In this document: piece by piece, positions 6,101 to 30,121 of the stretch | How positions within the stretch are numbered: the stretch's first letter is position 1 | Layout: every line of letters begins with the position of its first letter | NCBI RefSeq assembly: GCF_001517975.1 | Contig: NZ_KQ950183.1 | Location: 328,222-392,221, forward strand | Direction of reading: 5' to 3' | Length of the DNA: 64,000 nucleotides | Source: Thermobifida cellulosilytica TB100 | GTDB taxonomy: Bacteria > Actinomycetota > Actinomycetes > Streptosporangiales > Streptosporangiaceae | Translations under genes and position numbers: made by a program | Notes under the pieces: model-generated | The model's database searches: none | The model's input: only the letters and a program-made list of their open reading frames with translations | What the model was told of the DNA's origin: nothing

Positions 6101-6910
6101 GTGATGCAAGAAACCGGTTACAACTACCTGATGGACATGGACGGTGTGCTCGTCCGCGAGGAGCACGCCGTCCCCGGGGCCGACCAGTTCATCGCCGAGC
6201 TGCGCGCCAACGGCACCCGCTTCATGGTGCTGACCAACAACTCCATCTACACCCCGCGCGACCTGCGGGCACGGCTGCTGCGCAGCGGACTGGACATCCC
6301 CGAGGAGGCCATCTGGACCTCGGCGCTGGCCACCGCGCGCTTCCTGCAGGAGCAGCGGCCCGGCGGATCGGCCTACGTCATCGGGGAGTCAGGGCTGACC
6401 ACCGCGCTCCACAACGCCGGCTACATCCTGACCGAACGCGACCCCGACTACGTGGTCCTGGGGGAGACCCGCACCTACAGCTTCGAGGCGATCACCCGGG
6501 CCATCCGCCTCGTCGAGAGCGGCGCCCGGTTCATCGCCACCAACCCCGACGAGAAGGGGCCCAGCCGGGAGGGGTCGCTGCCCGCCACCGGGGCGGTCGC
6601 CGCACTCATCGAGAAGGCCACCGGACGCGCCCCCTACTACGTGGGCAAGCCGAACCCGCTGATGATGCGCTCCGCGCTGCGCGCCCTGGGCACGCACTCG
6701 GAGAACACCGTGATGATCGGCGACCGGATGGACACCGACGTGCGCTCCGGACTGGAAGCGGGCATGAAGACCGTCCTGGTTCTCACCGGGATCTCCGACG
6801 CCACCACCGCGGAGCTCTTCCCCTACCGGCCCACCGCCGTCCTCGGATCCGTGGCCGACCTGGTCGGGCGCAGCCGCGACCCGTTCGCCCCGCAGCCCTG
6901 CGCCGACTGA
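6101..6910 (+). CDS. HAD-IIA family phosphatase (NagD-like)
   Basis: A 269-residue cytosolic hydrolase of the NagD/UmpH type. The nucleophile motif MDMDGVL places the catalytic Asp at 12 and the acid/base Asp at 14. The motif VLTNNS follows near 45, the conserved lysine in YYVGKPNP near 186, and the metal-binding MIGDRMDTD near 205. Likely substrates are nucleotide or sugar phosphates. The start can be GTG 6101 or ATG 6104. A -10-like GACAAT at 6089-6094 would place transcription start at the codon itself, so a leaderless mRNA is possible; GGTGGGA at 6084-6090 could alternatively serve as ribosome binding site. Confidence 0.85.
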
Positions 6911-6977: not shown

Positions 6978-7361
6978 TCAGGCGCTGCGCCGCTGCTCGG
7001 ACAGGGAGCGCATGTGCTTCTGCTCCTCGCGGCGGCGGGCACGCAGCAGCTCCAGACGCTCGGCCAGCACCTCCTCCAGGTCCTCCATGCTGCGCCGCTC
7101 CAGCAGCATGTCCCAGTGGGTGCGCGCGGGCTTGGTCTTCTTCGCCTGCGGCTGCTTGCCGTCGACCATCAGCGCGCTCTCCCCGCAGAAGCGGCACTCC
7201 CAGGTCGCGGGGATCTCCGCCTCCGAGGCGAAGGTGATGGCGAAGCGATGGCCCCGAGGGCAGTCGTAGGTCACCTCCTGGCGCGGAGCCAGGTCGGTGT
7301 TGCGGTCGTTTTCGTAGCTGGTCGCCCCGAGTCGGGTTCCGCGAAGTGCTCGCTCGGCCAT
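6978..7361 (-). CDS. rbpA: RNA polymerase-binding protein RbpA
   Basis: RbpA binds RNA polymerase and the principal sigma factor in actinobacteria, stabilises the open complex and affects rifampicin tolerance. The 127-residue product starts MAERALRGTRLGATSYE, the conserved N-terminal tail. Its core (residues 30-80) contains YDCPRGHRF and WECRFCG, the zinc-binding cysteine positions of the Streptomyces type. A basic C-terminal sigma-interacting helix (THWDMLLERRSMEDLEEVL) follows. ATG 7361 is preceded by GGAGG. A SigR-type promoter lies 43 nt upstream. Confidence 0.95.
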   Translation of the reverse strand: MAERALRGTRLGATSYENDRNTDLAPRQEVTYDCPRGHRFAITFASEAEIPATWECRFCGESALMVDGKQPQAKKTKPARTHWDMLLERRSMEDLEEVLAERLELLRARRREEQKHMRSLSEQRRSA

Positions 7362-7692
7362 CGTGTGGGTGCCTCCAGGCGCTCTTGCGGTCTCGTGGGT
7401 GTCAACGCAACAGTCGGTCTCAAGATTCCCCGGACGGTGAACGCCCAACCGTGCGACAATGATCCGTTTCACGGTGGTCCCGGATCCGGTCCACCGATCC
7501 CCGCATTGTGGCCTGGGCCACCTGCCCCGCGGGCCGTGAATCACCGCAGTTCGCCACCGTTTGGCACAGCCTTTGCGGAGCGGCCGCCGCCGCACGGCAC
7601 CACGCCGAAAACCCGTGCTTTCGCCGCGGAAGCATCCCTGAAACATTCCGCTCCTAGGCTTCGGAGGCGTTCCCCGCACAAGGAGCACTGCC
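7362..7692. other. Divergent intergenic region between rbpA and the P450 gene
   Basis: 331 bp holding the rbpA promoter near 7404-7430. I see no convincing promoter hexamers for the P450 on the plus strand and no gene. Confidence 0.5.
7404..7430 (-). promoter_or_regulatory. SigR-type promoter of rbpA
   Basis: On the minus strand GGGAAT (7430-7425) is followed after exactly 18 nt by GTT (7406-7404), which matches the Streptomyces SigR consensus GGGAAT-N18/19-GTT. It lies 43 nt before the rbpA start codon, giving a predicted leader of about 35 nt. rbpA is a known SigR target in S. coelicolor. The match is seen; its use in this organism is inferred. Confidence 0.75.
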
Positions 7693-9198
7693 GTGAACCA
7701 AGGTCCGAGCCGCCCCCGCCCCACGCCCGGAACACCCCCTCAGCCGCGCTGCCCTGTGCACGCCCAAGCCGTCCCCCTCTACCGGAACGCCCACCGCTCC
7801 GACCACGCGCTGCTGTGGGAGGAGCTGCGCGCCCGCTTCGGCGCGGTCGCCCCCGTGGAGATCAGCCCCGGAGTCCCCGGCTGGCTGCTGCTGGGCTACC
7901 ACGAGAACCTCAACGTGCTGCGCAACCCCGTCAGCTTCTCCACCGACCCGGCCCGGTGGCGCGAGGCACGCGAGGGACGGCAGGAGAACCGCGTCGGCGG
8001 CACCGCCCTGGCCGCGGACGGCGAACGCCACCGCCGGATGCGCACCCCCCTCGTCGAGGCGCTGCACGCACTCAGCGGACGCCGCCTCAGCAGGACCGTC
8101 ACCCGCCTGGCCTCCTCGCTCGTCGACCGGTTCGCCACCACCGGACGCGCCGACCTCATCGCCGACTACGCGGCGCCGCTGCCCGCCATGGTGCTCAACT
8201 TCCTGTTCGGCCTCGACGACCGGTACGGCGACCTGCTGGCCCGGCTGTGCGCGGCCCGCGACGGCGACGACCCCGACGCAGCCGAGCGCGCCACCGCCGA
8301 CCTGCGCCGCTACGTGCGCGCCCTGGTCGCCCGCCGCCGCGCCGAACCCGGCGACGACCTCGTCTCACGGCTGCTCGCCCACCCCGTCGCCCTCACCGAC
8401 GCCGAGGTCGCCACCGAAGTGGAGACGCTGCTGCGGCTCGGCGTGGAACCCACCGCACACCTCATCGGCAACGCGCTGCGGCTGCTGCTCACCCAGCCCG
8501 AGGTCGCCGCCGCCTACCGGGGCGCGGCGCTGCCCTCCGTCGACTTCCTCGACTACGTGATGTGGGCCGACCCGCCGTTGCAGGCCCTGCAAGCCCGCTA
8601 CCCCACCCACGACGTCCGCATCGGCGGCGCCGACATCAAGGAGGGCGAGGCCCTGGTCCTGGGATTCGCCCCCGCGCACGCCGACCCGGCGACCCGCCGC
8701 GGCCACGCCCTCGACGACCTCGCCGGCAACCGCTCCCACCTGATGTGGGGGGCCGGACCGCACGGCTGCCCCGCCCGGGCACTGGCCTCCGAGGTCGCGG
8801 CCACCGCCATCGACGTCCTCCTCGACCGCCTCGACCCGAAACTGGACGGGCCGCCCGAGCAGCTCCGCTGGCGCGCCTCGCTGTCGGTGCACGGACTGGC
8901 CGCGCTGCCCGTGGTCTTCCCCCCGGAACCGGCCCCCGCCGTGCCGCAGCAGCCCGCCCCCCGCCCCAGGCGCCGCCTGCTGGCACGCACCGCACGCCGC
9001 ACCGCCGCCCCGCGGGGAGCCCGCTACGGCGCCCCCGGCGACACCGCCGAACCCCCCGCGCCCCGCACACCGACCGCCCGCCACGCGCGCGTCCCCGCAC
9101 CCGCCTCCCGGGCGACCGGAGCCCGCTACCATGTGCCCGCCCCCGCCGACGAGCCGCGACCCGACCCCCTGGAGGGCCTGCTCGCCCAGTGGGCGTGA
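7693..9198 (+). CDS. Cytochrome P450, CYP157-like, lacking the ExxR motif, with long C-terminal tail
   Basis: A 501-residue protein starting at GTG 7693 behind AAGGAGCACTGCC. The heme-binding loop WGAGPHGCPAR has its Cys near 359, and GVEPT fits the I-helix. The K-helix, normally ExxR, reads LDYVMWADPP near 286, so neither Glu nor Arg is in place. S. coelicolor CYP157C1 is the known precedent for such loss. The N-terminal RFGAVAPVE and DPARWREAREGR are shared with the second P450 of this type at 27566-29002. Residues after about 407 form a Pro/Arg-rich tail of roughly 95 residues ending LEGLLAQWA, which is not part of the P450 fold. No ferredoxin gene is adjacent. Catalytic competence is uncertain. 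Confidence 0.85.
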   Translation: MNQGPSRPRPTPGTPPQPRCPVHAQAVPLYRNAHRSDHALLWEELRARFGAVAPVEISPGVPGWLLLGYHENLNVLRNPVSFSTDPARWREAREGRQENRVGGTALAADGERHRRMRTPLVEALHALSGRRLSRTVTRLASSLVDRFATTGRADLIADYAAPLPAMVLNFLFGLDDRYGDLLARLCAARDGDDPDAAERATADLRRYVRALVARRRAEPGDDLVSRLLAHPVALTDAEVATEVETLLRLGVEPTAHLIGNALRLLLTQPEVAAAYRGAALPSVDFLDYVMWADPPLQALQARYPTHDVRIGGADIKEGEALVLGFAPAHADPATRRGHALDDLAGNRSHLMWGAGPHGCPARALASEVAATAIDVLLDRLDPKLDGPPEQLRWRASLSVHGLAALPVVFPPEPAPAVPQQPAPRPRRRLLARTARRTAAPRGARYGAPGDTAEPPAPRTPTARHARVPAPASRATGARYHVPAPADEPRPDPLEGLLAQWA

Positions 9199-9228: not shown

Positions 9229-10602
9229 TCAGACCCGCTCGGGCACCCGGTTGCCCGCCGCGCGGATCGCCGCCGGGACGTCCACGGCCAGCAGCAGCAC
9301 GAACCCCAGGGCGAAGAACACGATCATCGACAGGATCGCCAGCCGGTAGTCCCCGCCGGTGGCGTCCAGCACCACGCCCAGCGCGAGCGCCCCCAGAAAC
9401 GCCGACCCCTTGTCGCTGATCTCGTACAACCCGAAGTACTCCGCCTCCTTGCCCCTGGGGATGAGCTGAGAGAACAGGGAACGCGACAGCGCCTGGGTGC
9501 CGCCCAGCACGATCGCGATGAAGAAGGCCAGCGCGAAGAACTGCACGGCCGCGCCCTCCTGCAACAGCGGCGCCACCGCCACCACCGCGGTCCACACCAC
9601 GAGACTGCCCAGGACGGCTTTCTTCGCGCCCACACGCCGGGCGATCGCACCCAGCAGCAGCGCCCCGCCGAACGCCACGAACTGCACCATGAGGATCGTG
9701 CCGATCTGCACGGTCTGGTCCAGGCCCAGCGCCTGGTCGGCGAAGGTCGCCGAGAACCCGATGACGGTCTGGATGCCGTCGTTGAACAGGATGTAGGCGA
9801 CCAGGAACAGCAGCGTGCGCGGATAGGCGCGCAGACTCTTGACGGTCTGCCACAACTGGGTGAAGCTGCGGCCCACCGACAGGCGCCGCGGAGCGCCGTC
9901 CGGCTCCCCCCGGCGCCGGTTGCGCAGCCGGGCCAGCGGGATCAGGGTGAACACCGCCCACCACACGCCCGCCGACACCAGGCAGATGCGCACCGCGTGC
10001 CCCTCCTCCAGGCCCAGGCTCTCGTGGCTGAGGAACAGCGCCAGGTTGAGCGCGAGCAGCAGCGCGCCGCCCAGGTAGCCGGTCGCCCAGCCGCGGGACG
10101 ACACCGCGTCCCGCTCGTCCTCGGAGGCCAGGTCGGGCAGGAACGCGTTGGCGACCACCACCGAGGCGCCGAACGCGACGTTGGCCACCACGAACAGGCC
10201 CGCGCCGAGCACGTAGCGGTCCCCGTGCACGAAGTACAGGCCCATGGTGGCGAACGCGCCGAGGTAGGCGGTCACCCCGAGCAGCTCCCGCTTGCGCCCG
10301 CTGGTGTCGACGAACGCGCCGAGCACCGGCAGCAGCACCAGTTGGAGCAGCACCGACAGGGACGTGGCGTAGGGGTAGAGCGAGGCGGGCGTGACCAGCC
10401 AGCCGAACACGCTGATCCGGCCGTCGGCCCCGGCGCCGCCCTCGGCGAGCGCGGTCAGGTAGGGGCCGAGGAAGACGGTGATCACGGAGGTGGTGAAGAC
10501 CGACTGCGCCCAGTCGTACATGTACCAGGCGCGCCGCTCGGAGCGGCGGGCACGGTCCTCGCCGGGAGGGGCGGGGGGCGGCGCGGGAGTGGGGGACGAC
10601 AA
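9229..10602 (-). CDS. MFS transporter, UMF1 family
   Basis: A 457-residue membrane protein with 11-12 hydrophobic segments. It opens with the UMF1/Atg22-like YDWAQSVFTTSVITVFLGPYL near residue 35. The MFS loop motif between segments 2 and 3 reads GAFVDTSGRKRELL. UMF1 proteins are presumed exporters of small molecules; the substrate is unknown. I chose TTG 10602, which has GAGGAAG seven nt upstream; longer starts add an Arg-rich non-homologous segment. It lies 50 bp downstream of and co-directional with the GDPD gene, so the two probably form an operon. Confidence 0.85.
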   Translation of the reverse strand: MSSPTPAPPPAPPGEDRARRSERRAWYMYDWAQSVFTTSVITVFLGPYLTALAEGGAGADGRISVFGWLVTPASLYPYATSLSVLLQLVLLPVLGAFVDTSGRKRELLGVTAYLGAFATMGLYFVHGDRYVLGAGLFVVANVAFGASVVVANAFLPDLASEDERDAVSSRGWATGYLGGALLLALNLALFLSHESLGLEEGHAVRICLVSAGVWWAVFTLIPLARLRNRRRGEPDGAPRRLSVGRSFTQLWQTVKSLRAYPRTLLFLVAYILFNDGIQTVIGFSATFADQALGLDQTVQIGTILMVQFVAFGGALLLGAIARRVGAKKAVLGSLVVWTAVVAVAPLLQEGAAVQFFALAFFIAIVLGGTQALSRSLFSQLIPRGKEAEYFGLYEISDKGSAFLGALALGVVLDATGGDYRLAILSMIVFFALGFVLLLAVDVPAAIRAAGNRVPERV

Positions 10603-10652
10603 CGCGGTGCTTCCTCTCGTACGGGGACCGGCGTGCGGCGGCCGGCGGGTGG

Positions 10653-11453
10653 TCAGGACGAGGGGGCTGCGGGCCACAGCCCCCGGTCGGTCAGGACGCG
10701 GCGCAGCGCGGCGACGTCGTCGGTGACGATGCCGTCCACGCCCGCGTCCAGCAGGCGCCCCATCAGCGCGGGGTCGTTGACGGTCCACACGTGCACCTGG
10801 AGGCCCAGGCGGTGCGCGGCCGCCACCAGGTCCCGGGTGAGCAGCGGGAACCCCCGGTAGCGCAGGGGGATCTGCACGCAGGAGACGTCACGGCGGGCCA
10901 GCGGGAGCAGCAGCGGCACCAGGGAGGCCAGCCGCACCCGCAGCACGTCCACCGGGCCGCTGGACAGGGCCACCGGGCGGTCGAAGGTGCGGCGCACCCG
11001 CTCCAGACGCGCCTGGCTGAACGAGCCGACGCACACCCGGTGCCAGGCGTTGGTGCGGCGCAGCACCCGGCGCAGCGGCTCCACCGCCGCGTCGTCCTTG
11101 ACGTCGATGTTGAACCGCGCCTCGGGCAGGGCGCCCAGCAGGTCCTCCAGCAGCGGCACCGGCTCGCTGCCGCCGACGCGGGCGCGCGCCACCTCGGCGT
11201 AGGGCAGTTCGGCGACGGCGCCGGTGCGGTCGGTCACCCGGTCCAGGACGGGGTCGTGGAAGGCCAGCAGCACCCCGTCGGCGGTGGCGCGCACGTCCGT
11301 CTCCAGGTAGCGGTAGCCCAGGCGCACCGCGTGCTCGAAGGCCGCCGCGGTGTTCTCCAGGTCGGTGCGGACCCGGCCGTCCGGGCCGGTGATCCAGCCG
11401 CCCCGGTGCGCCAGGCCGATGGGGCCGGGGGCGGCGAGGTACACGTCGCTCAC
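10653..11453 (-). CDS. Glycerophosphodiester phosphodiesterase
   Basis: A 266-residue GDPD-family enzyme hydrolysing glycerophosphodiesters to glycerol 3-phosphate and an alcohol. The catalytic signature is present as AHRGG (residues 15-19), ETDVRATADGVLLAFHDPVLDR and FNIDVKDD. There is no signal peptide, so it should act in the cytoplasm. The GTG at 11453 begins VSDVYLAAPGPIGLAHRGG and fits the family length of 230-270. It is the first gene of a probable operon with the UMF1 transporter, which might import or export the related substrate. Confidence 0.88.
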   Translation of the reverse strand: MSDVYLAAPGPIGLAHRGGWITGPDGRVRTDLENTAAAFEHAVRLGYRYLETDVRATADGVLLAFHDPVLDRVTDRTGAVAELPYAEVARARVGGSEPVPLLEDLLGALPEARFNIDVKDDAAVEPLRRVLRRTNAWHRVCVGSFSQARLERVRRTFDRPVALSSGPVDVLRVRLASLVPLLLPLARRDVSCVQIPLRYRGFPLLTRDLVAAAHRLGLQVHVWTVNDPALMGRLLDAGVDGIVTDDVAALRRVLTDRGLWPAAPSS

Positions 11454-26477: not shown

Positions 26478-27689
26478 TCACGCCGCGGCCCGCTGCGCGC
26501 TCAACCGCACCGGCAGCGACGCCGGGGAGTTGATGAACACCGACCCCAGCCGCGGCACGTCCCCCTCCACCAGGGAGACCTCCGGGAACCGGGTGAACAG
26601 CGCCTTCAGGGCCACCTCCAGCTCCAGGCGGGCCAGCGCAGCACCCAGGCAGGTGTGCGGGCCGTGCCCGAAGGCCAGGTGCCGGGGACGCGACCGGGTC
26701 AGGTCGAACTCCGCGGCATCCGCACCGTAGCGGTCGGTGTCGAGGTTGGCCGCCAGGTAGGCGAGCAGCACCGGCTCCCCGGCCCGCACCGTCCGCCCGC
26801 CGATCTCCACGTCCTCGGCGGCGAACAGGAACGGCAGCGTCGCCACGCTCCCCGCCTGCCGCAGCACCTCCTCCACCGCGTCCGTCCACGCCGCCGACCC
26901 CGACCGCAGCAGCGCCAACTGCTCCGGGTGCGACAGCAGCGCCTGCACACCGTTGACCAGCGCAGACGACGTCGTCTCGAACCCGGCGGTCACCAGCAGC
27001 CACAGCGTGTCACGCAGCTCGGCGTCGCTGAGCTGGTGCTCCTCGTCGGTCGCCGACACCAGCGCCGACGTCAGGTCCTCGCCCGGCTCGCTGCGCTTGT
27101 CCGAGATCAGCTCGGTGAGGAACGCGTCCAACTGCTCACGCATGGCGCGCACCTCCTCCGGCGTGGACGGCGAGAACGCCGTGGCCACCATCTGCCGCAT
27201 CCGGTCGTGGTCGCGCTCGGGAATCCCGAACAGCTCGCTGAACACCCGCATCGACAGCGGATAGGCGAACTCGGCCTTGAGGTCGACCGGGCCGTCCCGC
27301 TCGGCCAGCTCCTCCAGCAGGGAGTCCACGACCGCGCCGACCGCCGGGCGCAGCGCCTCCACCCGCCGCGGGGTGAACGCCTTGGAGACCGGGCCGCGCA
27401 TCCGCCGGTGCGCCTCACCGTCCACGGTGAGCATGTTGTCCAGGTACACCATCGCCGCCACCGGGTGGTCGGTGGCGACCTCCCCCTCCGACAGGGCACG
27501 CCAGGTGCGCCAGTTGCGGCGGAACCGGGTGTCGACCAGCGCCTCGCGCAACTCCCGGTCGTGGGTCAGCGCCCAAACCTCCAGACCTTCCACCACCACG
27601 CGGGCAAGCGGCCCCGCTTCACGGAGCCGGAGGGCTTGGTCGTGGGCGTCTGAGGGGACGAGGACGATGGGTTCGGGGACTGCGGCCAT
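26478..27689 (-). CDS. Cytochrome P450, CYP154-like
   Basis: A 403-residue class I bacterial P450 with all canonical motifs: I-helix AGFETT near 240, K-helix EEVLR near 270, and heme loop FGHGPHTCLGAAL with Cys near 346. CYP154 enzymes hydroxylate steroids, macrolides and other bulky substrates in actinomycetes and are commonly paired with CYP157. The start ATG 27689 has TGGAGAAG upstream and lies inside the coding sequence of the preceding P450, overlapping it by 124 bp. The pair is surely co-transcribed. Redox partners are not encoded nearby. Confidence 0.9.
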   Translation of the reverse strand: MAAVPEPIVLVPSDAHDQALRLREAGPLARVVVEGLEVWALTHDRELREALVDTRFRRNWRTWRALSEGEVATDHPVAAMVYLDNMLTVDGEAHRRMRGPVSKAFTPRRVEALRPAVGAVVDSLLEELAERDGPVDLKAEFAYPLSMRVFSELFGIPERDHDRMRQMVATAFSPSTPEEVRAMREQLDAFLTELISDKRSEPGEDLTSALVSATDEEHQLSDAELRDTLWLLVTAGFETTSSALVNGVQALLSHPEQLALLRSGSAAWTDAVEEVLRQAGSVATLPFLFAAEDVEIGGRTVRAGEPVLLAYLAANLDTDRYGADAAEFDLTRSRPRHLAFGHGPHTCLGAALARLELEVALKALFTRFPEVSLVEGDVPRLGSVFINSPASLPVRLSAQRAAA

Positions 27690-29002
27690 GAGGCTTCTCC
27701 AGGTGGGGTGATGTCAACGGGGTAGAAGGTGACGGGCAGGGACTTCAGGCCGTGCGCGAACAGCGACCTGCGCCACTCCAGCGTCTCGGCGGGCACCGCC
27801 AGCCGCACGTCCGGCAGCAGGTCCAGCAGCGCCTCCACGGCGTCCACCGCGATCTGGCGGGCGATCTGCTGGGCCGGACACGCGTGCGGGCCGGTGCCCC
27901 ACGCCAGGTGGGCACGCATCCCCGACAGGCTGAGCGGGTCGATGTAGGGGGCCACCGTCGGATCGGCGTGCGCCGGACCGTAACCGATGATCAGACAGTC
28001 GCCCTCGGACAGGCGGGCCCCCTCCAACACGGTGTCGCGCACCGGGTAGCGGCCCGGAAGCAGCGTGATCGGCGGAGACCGCCACAGCACCGTGTCGACC
28101 ACGTCCTCCACCCGCAGGTGCGCCCCCGCCACGTCGTGCCGGACCTGCTGGTCCGTCATCAGCGTGTACACCGTGTTGGCGATCAGGTTCATCAACGGGT
28201 CGTGCGCCGCCGAGATCAACAGGATGAGCTGGTGCGCGATCTCCTCGTCGTCCAACGCGTTGGGGTGGACGACCATCCGCGACACGATGTCGGACCCCGG
28301 CTCCTCCCGCCTGCGGGCGGTCACCGCCTGGGCGTAGGAGAACAGGCCCAGCCGCGCCGCCTCCGCCTGCTCACCGCCGTCCCACACCTGCCGCATCAGG
28401 TCCACCAGGTCGGCGCCCTCCTGCGGCGGCAGGCCGAAGTAGCGGTTGAGCACCAGCAGCGGCACCCGGAACGCAAAGTCGGACACCAGGTCGGCACGCC
28501 CCGACTGCGCCACCGGCGCCAGCAGCTCGGTGGAGATCCGCCGCACCGCCAGCCGCGTGCCGTCGGCGGTGATCCCGCTGAGCGCGTCCACGATCACCGG
28601 ACGGTAGCGGCTGTGGTCGGGATCGTCGGAGGCCAGCGCGTTGCGGAAGTACCAGAACGGACCCGGCACCTTCTCCGGGGTGGCCCGCCCCTCCCGGGCC
28701 TCCCGCCACCGCCGCGGATCACGCGCGAACTCCGTGGAATCCTGCAACACCCGGCGGTTGGCGTCGTAGCCCAGCAGGATCCACGCGGCCACCCCCGGCG
28801 CCACCTCCACGGGCGCCACGGCACCGAACCGCTTGCGCAGCCGCTCCAACAGCTCCGGAAGGTTGGTGTCCAACTCCCCGTGCACGGGCACCGCCAGACG
28901 GTGCAACGCCTCCGGATGGGACAGGTCGACAGGGCAGCCGCCGGGGGGCCCCTCCCCAGTGCGGGACTCCGGACGGTCTGCCGGAAAGAGTGGCTGGTTC
29001 AC
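27566..29002 (-). CDS. Cytochrome P450, CYP157-like, lacking the ExxR motif
   Basis: A 478-residue P450 starting at GTG 29002. The heme loop WGTGPHACPAQ has its Cys near 373. The K-helix reads VVDTVLWRSPP near 301: Asp replaces Glu and Trp the Arg of ExxR, as in Streptomyces CYP157 proteins. The I-helix SAAHDPLMN lacks the usual Thr. It shares RFGAVAPVE and DPRRWREAREGR with the P450 at 7693. The C-terminus runs 41 codons into the downstream CYP154-like gene and is a Ser/Pro/Thr-rich tail of about 49 residues, perhaps created by loss of an earlier stop. Upstream lies a palindrome and the divergent MpaB-type gene. Confidence 0.85.
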   Translation of the reverse strand: MNQPLFPADRPESRTGEGPPGGCPVDLSHPEALHRLAVPVHGELDTNLPELLERLRKRFGAVAPVEVAPGVAAWILLGYDANRRVLQDSTEFARDPRRWREAREGRATPEKVPGPFWYFRNALASDDPDHSRYRPVIVDALSGITADGTRLAVRRISTELLAPVAQSGRADLVSDFAFRVPLLVLNRYFGLPPQEGADLVDLMRQVWDGGEQAEAARLGLFSYAQAVTARRREEPGSDIVSRMVVHPNALDDEEIAHQLILLISAAHDPLMNLIANTVYTLMTDQQVRHDVAGAHLRVEDVVDTVLWRSPPITLLPGRYPVRDTVLEGARLSEGDCLIIGYGPAHADPTVAPYIDPLSLSGMRAHLAWGTGPHACPAQQIARQIAVDAVEALLDLLPDVRLAVPAETLEWRRSLFAHGLKSLPVTFYPVDITPPGEASWPQSPNPSSSSPQTPTTKPSGSVKRGRLPAWWWKVWRFGR

Positions 29003-29116
29003 GAACCACCGCCCGCAGACAGGATCCAGCGGGAACGAAGAAAACGAGAAGACATCAGACTCATAACGCCAAGATCGTGAACAACCCTCCGCCCGTTTGT
29101 CATGCCCATGACGGAT

Positions 29117-29133
29117 ATCCCCATGATGGGGAT
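29117..29133. promoter_or_regulatory. 17-bp palindromic operator candidate between the P450 operon and the MpaB-type gene
   Basis: ATCCCCAT-G-ATGGGGAT has perfect 8-bp arms around one central base. It lies midway in the 156-bp divergent gap (29003-29158), 25 bp before the preferred MpaB start. A dimeric repressor controlling both directions is the simplest reading; no regulator gene is adjacent. Confidence 0.55.
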
Positions 29134-29158
29134 GCCCCGTGTCGGTACCATCGGACCT

Positions 29159-30121
29159 GTGACGGTCCACGAGCAGGCAGACGCCGCAGAACCGAGACCG
29201 ACCTTCGCCCTGCCCGAGGAGGTCACCTGGCGGCTGCACCTCGACCGCGCCATGTGGGTGGCAGGCGTACGCGCCCTCATGCTCCAAGCCCTGCACCCCG
29301 TCGCCCTCCAAGGCGTCTGGCAGCGCTCCGACTTCCGCACCGACCCCACCGGACGCCTCCTGCGCACCGCCGACTACGTCGCCGTCACCACCTACGGCAG
29401 CCCCGCCGAGGTCGAACAGGCCGCCGCCCGCGTCCGACACGTCCACGCCCGACTGTCCTTCACCGACCCGGCCACCGGCCGCCGCCACCGCGTCGACGAA
29501 CCCGACCTGCTGCTGTGGGTGCACTGCGCCGAAGTCGTCTCCTACCTGGAAGTGGTGGCCCGCGCGGGACTCCCGCTCACCCGCGCCGACGCCGACCGCT
29601 ACCTCGCCGAACAGGTTCGCACCGCCACCCTCGTCGGACTCGACCCCGCCGACGTGCCCGCCTCCGTCGCACAGATGCGCCGCTACCTCGCCGCGATCCG
29701 CCCCCGCCTGCGCGCCGGACCCCAGGCCCGCGCCGTGGCCCGCTACCTGCTGTGGCCCGCCCTGCCCGACCGGCTCGCCCCACTGCGCCCCCTGCGACCG
29801 CTGTGGCTGCCCGTCGGCGCCCTCGCCTACTACACGCTGCCGGACTGGGCACGCCGCGCCTACCGGCTGCTGCCCGAACCACCCGGCACCCAGACCGCCG
29901 TCACCGCCGCCCTCGGCGCGCTGCGCACCGCCCTCAACGCCCTGCCCACCACCGTCTACAACCTCCTCTTCGACGAAGCCACCGTGCGCCGCGCCGACGC
30001 CGCCAGACACCGGCTCGCCGCAGCCGGATACGACGTCAGCCGCGGCCTGCAAGGCCTGCGCCGCCCCGCCTCCCGGCCACCCGGCCGCACCCACCCGAAT
30101 CAGCCCGCCCCGCACGGGTAG
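29159..30121 (+). CDS. MpaB/Lcp-type oxygenase (DUF2236)
   Basis: A 320-residue protein of the oxygenase MpaB family, distant relatives of the b-type heme rubber oxygenase Lcp and fungal MpaB. Conserved elements are HLDRAMWVAGVRALMLQALHPVALQGV (residues 25-51), DYVAVTTYGS and LLWVHCAEVVSYL, whose histidines are candidate heme ligands. A Pro-rich basic tail ends the protein. The GTG at 29159 is preferred because upstream ATG codons (from 29102) would place the palindrome inside the gene. The substrate is unknown; divergence from two P450 genes suggests a shared oxidative role. Confidence 0.8.
   Translation: MTVHEQADAAEPRPTFALPEEVTWRLHLDRAMWVAGVRALMLQALHPVALQGVWQRSDFRTDPTGRLLRTADYVAVTTYGSPAEVEQAAARVRHVHARLSFTDPATGRRHRVDEPDLLLWVHCAEVVSYLEVVARAGLPLTRADADRYLAEQVRTATLVGLDPADVPASVAQMRRYLAAIRPRLRAGPQARAVARYLLWPALPDRLAPLRPLRPLWLPVGALAYYTLPDWARRAYRLLPEPPGTQTAVTAALGALRTALNALPTTVYNLLFDEATVRRADAARHRLAAAGYDVSRGLQGLRRPASRPPGRTHPNQPAPHG

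What the first reader, a model, noticed from the sequence alone, without database searches (positions are those of the whole stretch)
7693..9198. CYP157-like P450 without ExxR and with a 95-residue disordered tail
The K-helix Glu and Arg, otherwise nearly universal in P450s, are replaced (LDYVMW), while the heme Cys is kept. The Pro/Arg-rich tail is not part of the fold and could tether a partner. Unlike typical CYP157 genes this copy has no CYP154 neighbour.
Basis: partly seen in the sequence, partly recalled or inferred. Interest (0 to 1): 0.6.

Follow-up and report, generated by a model that had tools for sequence, protein, structure and literature searches.

The report
Orphan CYP157-like P450 with docking tail
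This is a member of a known odd branch of cytochrome P450 enzymes that lost a nearly universal salt-bridge motif; what is less expected is that its long floppy tail carries two short repeated motifs and an end helix kept by evolution, which suggests the tail docks the enzyme onto something still unknown.

Summary
The gene is real (window 7693-9198 +, 501 aa). ExxR is gone: by alignment it reads Y288-V-M-W291; haem Cys359 is kept. This is no private oddity: Trp replaces the ExxR Arg in 33 of 34 CYP157-like proteins gathered here, Glu survives in 3 of 34, Cys in 34 of 34, and ExxR loss in CYP157 is published (PMC3599690, passages). Lack of a CYP154 neighbour is common too (23 of 34); a CYP157/CYP154-like pair lies 18 kb away in the same window.

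The less expected part is the 92-residue tail. In 9 of 9 intact orthologs it holds an arginine-rich stretch, two G[A/V]RYxxP boxes 26-34 residues apart and a terminal DxLExL[L/V]xxW segment; the rest drifts. A linker with a hydrophobic end is common in the branch (31 of 34); the boxes mark this clade. Seven of ten copies lie beside rbpA; ten of ten share an upstream GAAACA-N7-C[C/A]TA element. Best reading: a haem-thiolate P450 docked by its tail to an unidentified partner; docking and partner are inferred. New variant of a known kind, moderate interest.

The parts
7693..9198 (+). orphan CYP157-like P450, 501 aa, GTG start
   Evidence: open frame; P450 matches
8449..8451 (+). Pro253 in the I-helix at the position of the usual catalytic Thr
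   Evidence: alignment; Pro in 29 of 34 CYP157-like, Thr in 3 of 3 CYP154-like
8551..8565 (+). K-helix D287-Y-V-M-W291; ExxR positions are Y288 and W291
   Evidence: alignments; coordinates checked
8767..8769 (+). haem-ligand Cys359, followed by Pro-Ala instead of x-Gly
   Evidence: alignment; Cys in 34 of 34
8920..9195 (+). C-terminal tail, residues 410-501
   Evidence: core end set by alignment; mostly pLDDT below 50
8962..9015 (+). arginine-rich segment before box 1 (residues 424-441)
   Evidence: tail alignment, by eye
9016..9036 (+). box 1, GARYGAP (residues 442-448)
   Evidence: GARYxAP in 9 of 9 intact orthologs
9118..9138 (+). box 2, GARYHVP (residues 476-482)
   Evidence: G[A/V]RYxxP in 9 of 9 intact orthologs
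9163..9195 (+). terminal segment DPLEGLLAQWA (residues 491-501)
   Evidence: kept in 9 of 9; modelled helix 492-500, block mean pLDDT 92
7629..7660 (+). promoter-like element: GAAGCAT and GAAACAT 11 bp apart, then CCTAGGCT
   Evidence: GAAACA-N7-C[CA]TA-NNN-T in 10 of 10 clade genes, the GAAGCA unit in 6 of 10
7404..7430 (-). GGGAAT-N18-GTT upstream of the divergent rbpA gene (SigR-type pattern; consensus recalled)
6978..7361 (-). rbpA, RNA polymerase-binding protein, divergent neighbour, 127 aa
   Evidence: Pfam RbpA 1.7e-46; reading checked
9229..10788 (-). Atg22-type MFS transporter, convergent neighbour
   Evidence: Pfam ATG22 7.8e-99
27566..28957 (-). second CYP157-like P450 (K-helix VDTVLW), paired with a CYP154-like gene; gene start not fixed
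26478..27689 (-). CYP154-like P450 (K-helix EEVLR, ExxR intact)

Best explanation
An orphan member of the CYP157-like branch. Shown by sequence and model: a P450 fold, the haem Cys kept, Trp in place of the ExxR Arg as in the rest of the branch, and a clade-specific tail made of an arginine-rich segment, two GARYxxP boxes and a terminal segment modelled as a helix, all kept while the linker drifts. Inferred: the core holds haem through Cys359, Trp291 and neighbours replace the ExxR salt bridge structurally, and the tail docks the P450 onto a protein partner through the end helix and the paired boxes, bringing its ligand-binding or oxidising chemistry to one place. No neighbouring gene suggests itself as the partner, so it would be supplied from elsewhere in the genome.
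For: Tail motifs in 9 of 9 intact orthologs; 15 of the 20 invariant tail columns lie in the boxes and the end segment, and 18 of the 20 use more than one codon. Box spacing 26-34 aa, box-to-helix 7-10 aa. In the own genome the box pattern has four matches, two of them in this gene, against 0 for the reversed pattern; the other two lie in a 17-residue open frame and in a frame that looks wrong for its locus, by my reading. Block 491-500 is modelled at mean pLDDT 92 inside a low-confidence tail. The nine form one branch, support 100/99. Ten of ten clade genes share the upstream element.
Against: No partner was found. The boxes themselves lie in low-confidence stretches of the model (box 1 within 423-453, box 2 mostly within 477-481), and the model rests on 10 sequences. 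The end segment is not an outstanding amphipathic helix: by hydrophobic moment the query's is 31st of 96 ten-residue stretches of its tail, the orthologs' 1st to 27th. Many relatives outside the clade end in basic, Trp-bearing segments, which would suit a membrane surface as well. The sister clade is followed by an aldehyde dehydrogenase gene in 6 of 6 loci, which points to plain enzymology. Genome G003 of the same genus has no copy.
Confidence: 0.45

Rival explanations
1. The tail is a membrane-surface anchor: the arginine-rich segment and the Trp-bearing end lie on the inner leaflet and hold a P450 near lipophilic substrates; the GARYxxP boxes are part of that or act as spacers.
For: Ends of many relatives are rich in Trp and Arg/Lys; the last 105 residues of the query have a net charge of +8.
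Against: The end segment of this clade is short, acidic at its start and has one Trp; a lipid anchor would not need two nearly exact GARYxxP boxes (argument, not test).
Confidence: 0.2
2. An ordinary catalytic monooxygenase; the tail tunes it from within, for instance by folding back on the core, and has no outside partner.
For: The sister clade is directly followed by an aldehyde dehydrogenase gene in 6 of 6 loci; Cys is kept in 34 of 34; the end helix is modelled with confidence in a single chain. A published survey counts CYP157 among the P450 families most often found in Streptomyces biosynthetic gene clusters (PMC7369989, passages).
Against: That dehydrogenase is in none of the other loci of the same search, the clade's own included; the I-helix Thr position is Pro and the Gly after Cys is Ala, so standard oxygen activation is doubtful.
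Confidence: 0.2
3. An in-trans CvnE: the P450 senses a small molecule and modulates a conservon histidine kinase that has no sensory domain of its own.
For: P450 accessory proteins (CvnE) go with kinases lacking sensory domains, and one was modelled at the kinase ATPase domains (PMC13343842, passages and one section). The own genome has 8 DUF742 hits over the cut-off, one of them followed by a P450 (L044); two conservon kinase genes that by eye lack a membrane-spanning sensory part have no P450 beside them (L144, L146).
Against: None of the 10 copies has a conservon homolog in the DNA held around it. Three of the six conservon-linked CYP157-like proteins lack the long tail (L037, L044, L131). 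One of the two kinase operons is followed by a putative flavoprotein gene instead (by eye).
Confidence: 0.12
4. A degenerate P450 on its way out, with the tail a leftover of composition.
For: Three textbook motifs are altered; no copy in one of the four genomes of the genus; one of ten copies (L013) is frameshifted.
Against: Core and tail motifs are kept across 9 intact orthologs, the other eight 49-78% identical to the query.
Confidence: 0.03

Closest known systems
CYP157 family of Streptomyces (EVLW and EQSLW motifs, from PMC3599690 passages)
   Same: Trp in place of the ExxR Arg and Cys kept; conservon-linked relatives in genome G220, of another family, also have tails with a Trp-bearing end (L129, L130)
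   Different: ExxR Glu position is Tyr; no CYP154-like gene and no conservon beside it; two GARYxxP boxes; 36-38% identity to the two G220 relatives
CvnE accessory P450s of conservons (actinobacterial G protein systems)
   Same: same P450 branch by sequence, judged from conservon-linked relatives found here
   Different: not encoded behind cvnA-D
P450-derived glycosyltransferase activators (NCBIfam TIGR04515)
   Same: P450 fold with altered motifs
   Different: 72.5 bits against a cut-off of 343; these activators lack the haem Cys (recalled), which is kept here
CYP154
   Same: closest solved fold (1gwi); the gene beside 11 of 34 CYP157-like genes here
   Different: ExxR, I-helix Thr and the Gly after Cys intact, and no tail, in 3 of 3 CYP154-like proteins here

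Membership tests
CYP157 | P450 fold with Cys haem ligand | tested here: met
   Cys359 aligned in 34 of 34. Haem binding itself not tested
CYP157 | K-helix ExxR Arg replaced by Trp | tested here: met
   W291; motifs EVLW and EQSLW for named CYP157s from PMC3599690 passages
CYP157 | at least 40% identity to named CYP157 proteins | tested here: inconclusive
   40-43% to the paired CYP157-like protein of the same window, 36-38% to the G220 relatives; no named CYP157 sequence was at hand
CYP157 | CYP154 gene directly beside it (frequent, not defining) | tested here: not met
   nearest CYP154-like gene 17 kb away
CvnE (conservon accessory P450) | encoded directly behind cvnA-cvnD | tested here: not met
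   no CvnA-D homolog in the window or in the DNA held around the orthologs
P450-derived glycosyltransferase activator | score over the curated cut-off of TIGR04515 | tested here: not met
   72.5 of 343 bits
functional P450 monooxygenase | 450 nm ferrous-CO band and turnover | not testable with these tools
   needs purified protein

The most novel reading that the evidence does not exclude
A P450 domain used as a cargo or sensor module: a clade-specific insertion of two GARYxxP docking boxes ahead of an older end helix frees a CYP157-type haem protein from conservon and CYP154 partners and plugs it, in trans, into another complex (a conservon kinase without its own sensor, or a polar or membrane scaffold), so that the haem pocket reports a ligand rather than, or as well as, oxidising it.
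Probability: 0.12. Interest if true: 0.75.

Novelty: new variant of a known kind. Interest (0 to 1): 0.4.

Why it matters
CYP157 occurs in most or all Streptomyces surveyed (PMC6408508, PMC7369989; passages) and I met no assigned function for it in the passages read. A conserved tail with repeated boxes gives a concrete handle: it can serve as bait for the partner, in organisms where the gene stands alone. If the tail recruits the protein to a signalling or other complex, that would help explain why a P450 branch lost the usual motifs but not its haem cysteine.

Tried and rejected
Correlation of a kept ExxR Glu with conservon linkage: it looked perfect on 30 proteins (the 3 with Glu are the 3 conservon-linked ones) but failed when four more were added (L129, L130, L131 are conservon-linked without Glu); dropped.

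Tail as a peculiarity of this protein: rejected after seeing a linker with a hydrophobic end in 31 of 34 relatives.

Dependence on the CYP157/CYP154-like pair of the window: unlikely; in the same genus G001 has the orphan and no second match at E<=1e-70, and G003 has the pair but not the orphan.

The box pattern, loosened to G[A/V]RY, as a family-wide DNA search was too noisy to use: 172 of 200 genomes have a match, and the reversed control also rings in many; the match list was cut. ECF-sigma reading of the upstream element: spacing does not fit; left open. Hydrophobic moment of the end segment: not outstanding in the query. Second model, of the paired CYP157-like protein: its end helix 473-480 has low confidence (block mean 39), so a confident end helix is not shown for the branch.

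Rows dropped before counts: L013, a tenth ortholog with a frameshift, is in the promoter and locus counts but not in the tree, tail or residue counts; it has both boxes in its later frame. The 34 proteins are those that searches returned and I fetched, not a random sample; 32 of them come from genomes of the window's family or from Nocardiopsidaceae. L132 is the one of 34 without Trp at the Arg position (Leu, in a poorly aligned stretch). The tail was part of the alignment behind the tree, so the clade's support is not fully independent of it.

Full report
What is there. Window 7693-9198 (+) is one open frame of 501 aa with a good ribosome-binding site (AAGGAG at 7680-7685). It is a cytochrome P450 by Pfam (3e-06), by 359 distinct PDB sequences at E<=0.001, of which the 60 listed are nearly all named P450s, and by fold: the model's best match is CYP154C1, 1gwi, TM-score 0.83 over the target.

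The K-helix. Against three CYP154-like proteins (EEVLR, EESLR, EECLR) the query reads DYVMW, so the ExxR Glu is Tyr288 and the Arg is Trp291, with Asp287 one position before. Over 34 CYP157-like proteins collected here the Arg position is Trp in 33 (Leu in one poorly aligned stretch), the Glu position is Glu in 3, the I-helix Thr position is Pro in 29, the residue two after Cys is Ala in 27, Gly in 5 and Ser in 2, and Cys is Cys in 34; the 3 CYP154-like proteins have Arg, Glu, Thr, Gly and Cys at these places. The same is in print for named CYP157s (EVLW, EQSLW; PMC3599690, passages, which cites Rupasinghe et al. 2006; that paper I did not see). One survey states that all 1625 Streptomyces P450s it kept have the Glu of ExxR (PMC6408508, passages), which does not fit the alignment here and may rest on reading the Glu of EQSLW as that of ExxR. 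So the finding is correct but describes the family's trademark. Two surveys find CYP157 in most or all Streptomyces (PMC6408508, PMC7369989; passages).

The tail. It is mostly so in the model (pLDDT under 50 for 418-421, 423-453, 461-473, 477-481) but ends in helix 492-500, block mean 92. Nine intact orthologs (own, G001, G002, L008-L012, L070) were compared: all nine have two G[A/V]RYxxP boxes, 26-34 residues apart, the second 7-10 residues before D[PAS]LExL[LV]xxW. In the tail alignment 20 of 127 columns are invariant, 15 of them in the boxes and the end segment, and 18 of the 20 use more than one codon (the exceptions are a Tyr and the Trp column): the protein motif, not the DNA, is kept. 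The own genome holds four matches of the box pattern, two of them here, against none for the reversed pattern; the other two sit in a 17-residue open frame and in a frame that looks wrong for its locus, by my reading.

Branch view of the tail. After the core, 31 of 34 CYP157-like proteins have 43-106 further residues ending in a hydrophobic segment, with Trp in 30 of the 31; the three short ones (L037, L044, L131) are conservon-linked, while L043, L129 and L130 are conservon-linked with a tail. The closest sister clade (6 proteins) has tails of 45-54 residues ending in forms such as DPLTRLLRWW or DLLSRVLRWW; the query clade has 89-106. The simplest reading is an older linker plus end helix, into which the query clade gained the arginine-rich segment and the two boxes. 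The tree supports both clades (100/99 and 100/100) and their union (98/97); the tail was part of the alignment used, so this is not fully independent.

Locus. Ten copies are known here: the nine and the frameshifted L013. In seven (own, G001, G002, L008, L009, L010, L011) the gene stands beside rbpA, divergent from it, with the HAD hydrolase and FxsA genes beyond. The Atg22-type transporter is its direct other neighbour in three (own, G001, G002), lies further on behind other genes in two (L009, L011) and is not seen in the DNA held for two (L008, L010). L012, L013 and L070 have other neighbours. Of seven rbpA loci taken from genomes chosen because they lack the clade, none has a P450 match; in G003, of the same genus, rbpA and the transporter are about 676 bases apart. 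Upstream of the gene ten of ten copies carry GAAACA-N7-C[CA]TA-NNN-T, seven found by pattern and three recognised by eye and then checked; a second unit GAAGCA lies 11 bp before it in six of ten. The 18 other CYP157-like genes scanned lack the pattern in the 260 bases before their match start, which is not always the gene start. This element is apart from the likely rbpA promoter (7404-7430, minus strand).

Neighbours in kin. A CYP154-like gene lies beside 11 of 34 CYP157-like genes, and six of 34 follow cvnA-D (L037, L043, L044, L129, L130, L131); L040 has a CvnB-like match behind its pair. The query clade (9 of 9) and its sister (6 of 6) have neither in the DNA held next to them; flanks held vary from about 2 to 10 kb. 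The sister is directly followed by an aldehyde dehydrogenase gene in 6 of 6 loci, and that gene matches none of the other loci of the search. That is an argument for real oxidation chemistry in the sister.

How it most likely works. Shown: the anatomy and its conservation. Inferred: haem binding through Cys359, structural replacement of the salt bridge by Trp, and docking by the tail. A published model puts a conservon P450 (CvnE11) at the ATPase domains of its kinase, with biochemistry untested (PMC13343842, passages and section 15). The own genome has two conservon kinases that by eye lack membrane-spanning sensory parts and have no P450 beside them (L144, L146), so an in-trans partner of that kind is possible but nothing here shows it.

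Verdict. My literature searches were few and cover open-access papers only: none paired CYP157 with Nocardiopsis, none matched the four terms for a disordered P450 extension in actinobacteria, and the two that hold CYP157 and 'C-terminal' are by title and abstract about other matters (listing only). Absence from print is not established.

Noticed in passing
window 26478-28957 (-): A CYP157-like/CYP154-like gene pair without any conservon gene in the window; its CYP157-like member ends in PAWWWKVWRFGR. An MpaB-type oxygenase gene (29102-30121, +) is divergent from it.
   Followed up: partly
window 7629-7660: Conserved promoter-like element, GAAACA-N7-C[CA]TA-NNN-T in 10 of 10 genes of the orphan clade whether or not they lie at rbpA; a GAAGCA unit 11 bp before it in 6 of 10.
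   Followed up: partly
L038, L039, L072, L073, L075, L077: Sister-clade P450 followed by an aldehyde dehydrogenase gene in 6 of 6. An M50-protease-like gene and the gene before it (possibly dxr) are nearby in 5 of 6, an ispG-like gene in 4 of 6 (names by eye from protein starts, not tested).
   Followed up: partly
L146:7111-8337: In the own genome a conservon without P450 is followed by a gene whose start looks like an FAD-dependent monooxygenase, possibly another kind of accessory protein (by eye).
   Followed up: no
L142-L146 and L044: CvnA-like kinases also carry long Pro-rich tails, several with a recurring LP[RKV]R motif (by eye), an architecture like that of the CYP157 tails.
   Followed up: no
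L013:6001-7457: The ortholog of Nocardiopsis sp. CNR-923 is split over two reading frames near 6216-6254; draft error or broken gene.
   Followed up: no
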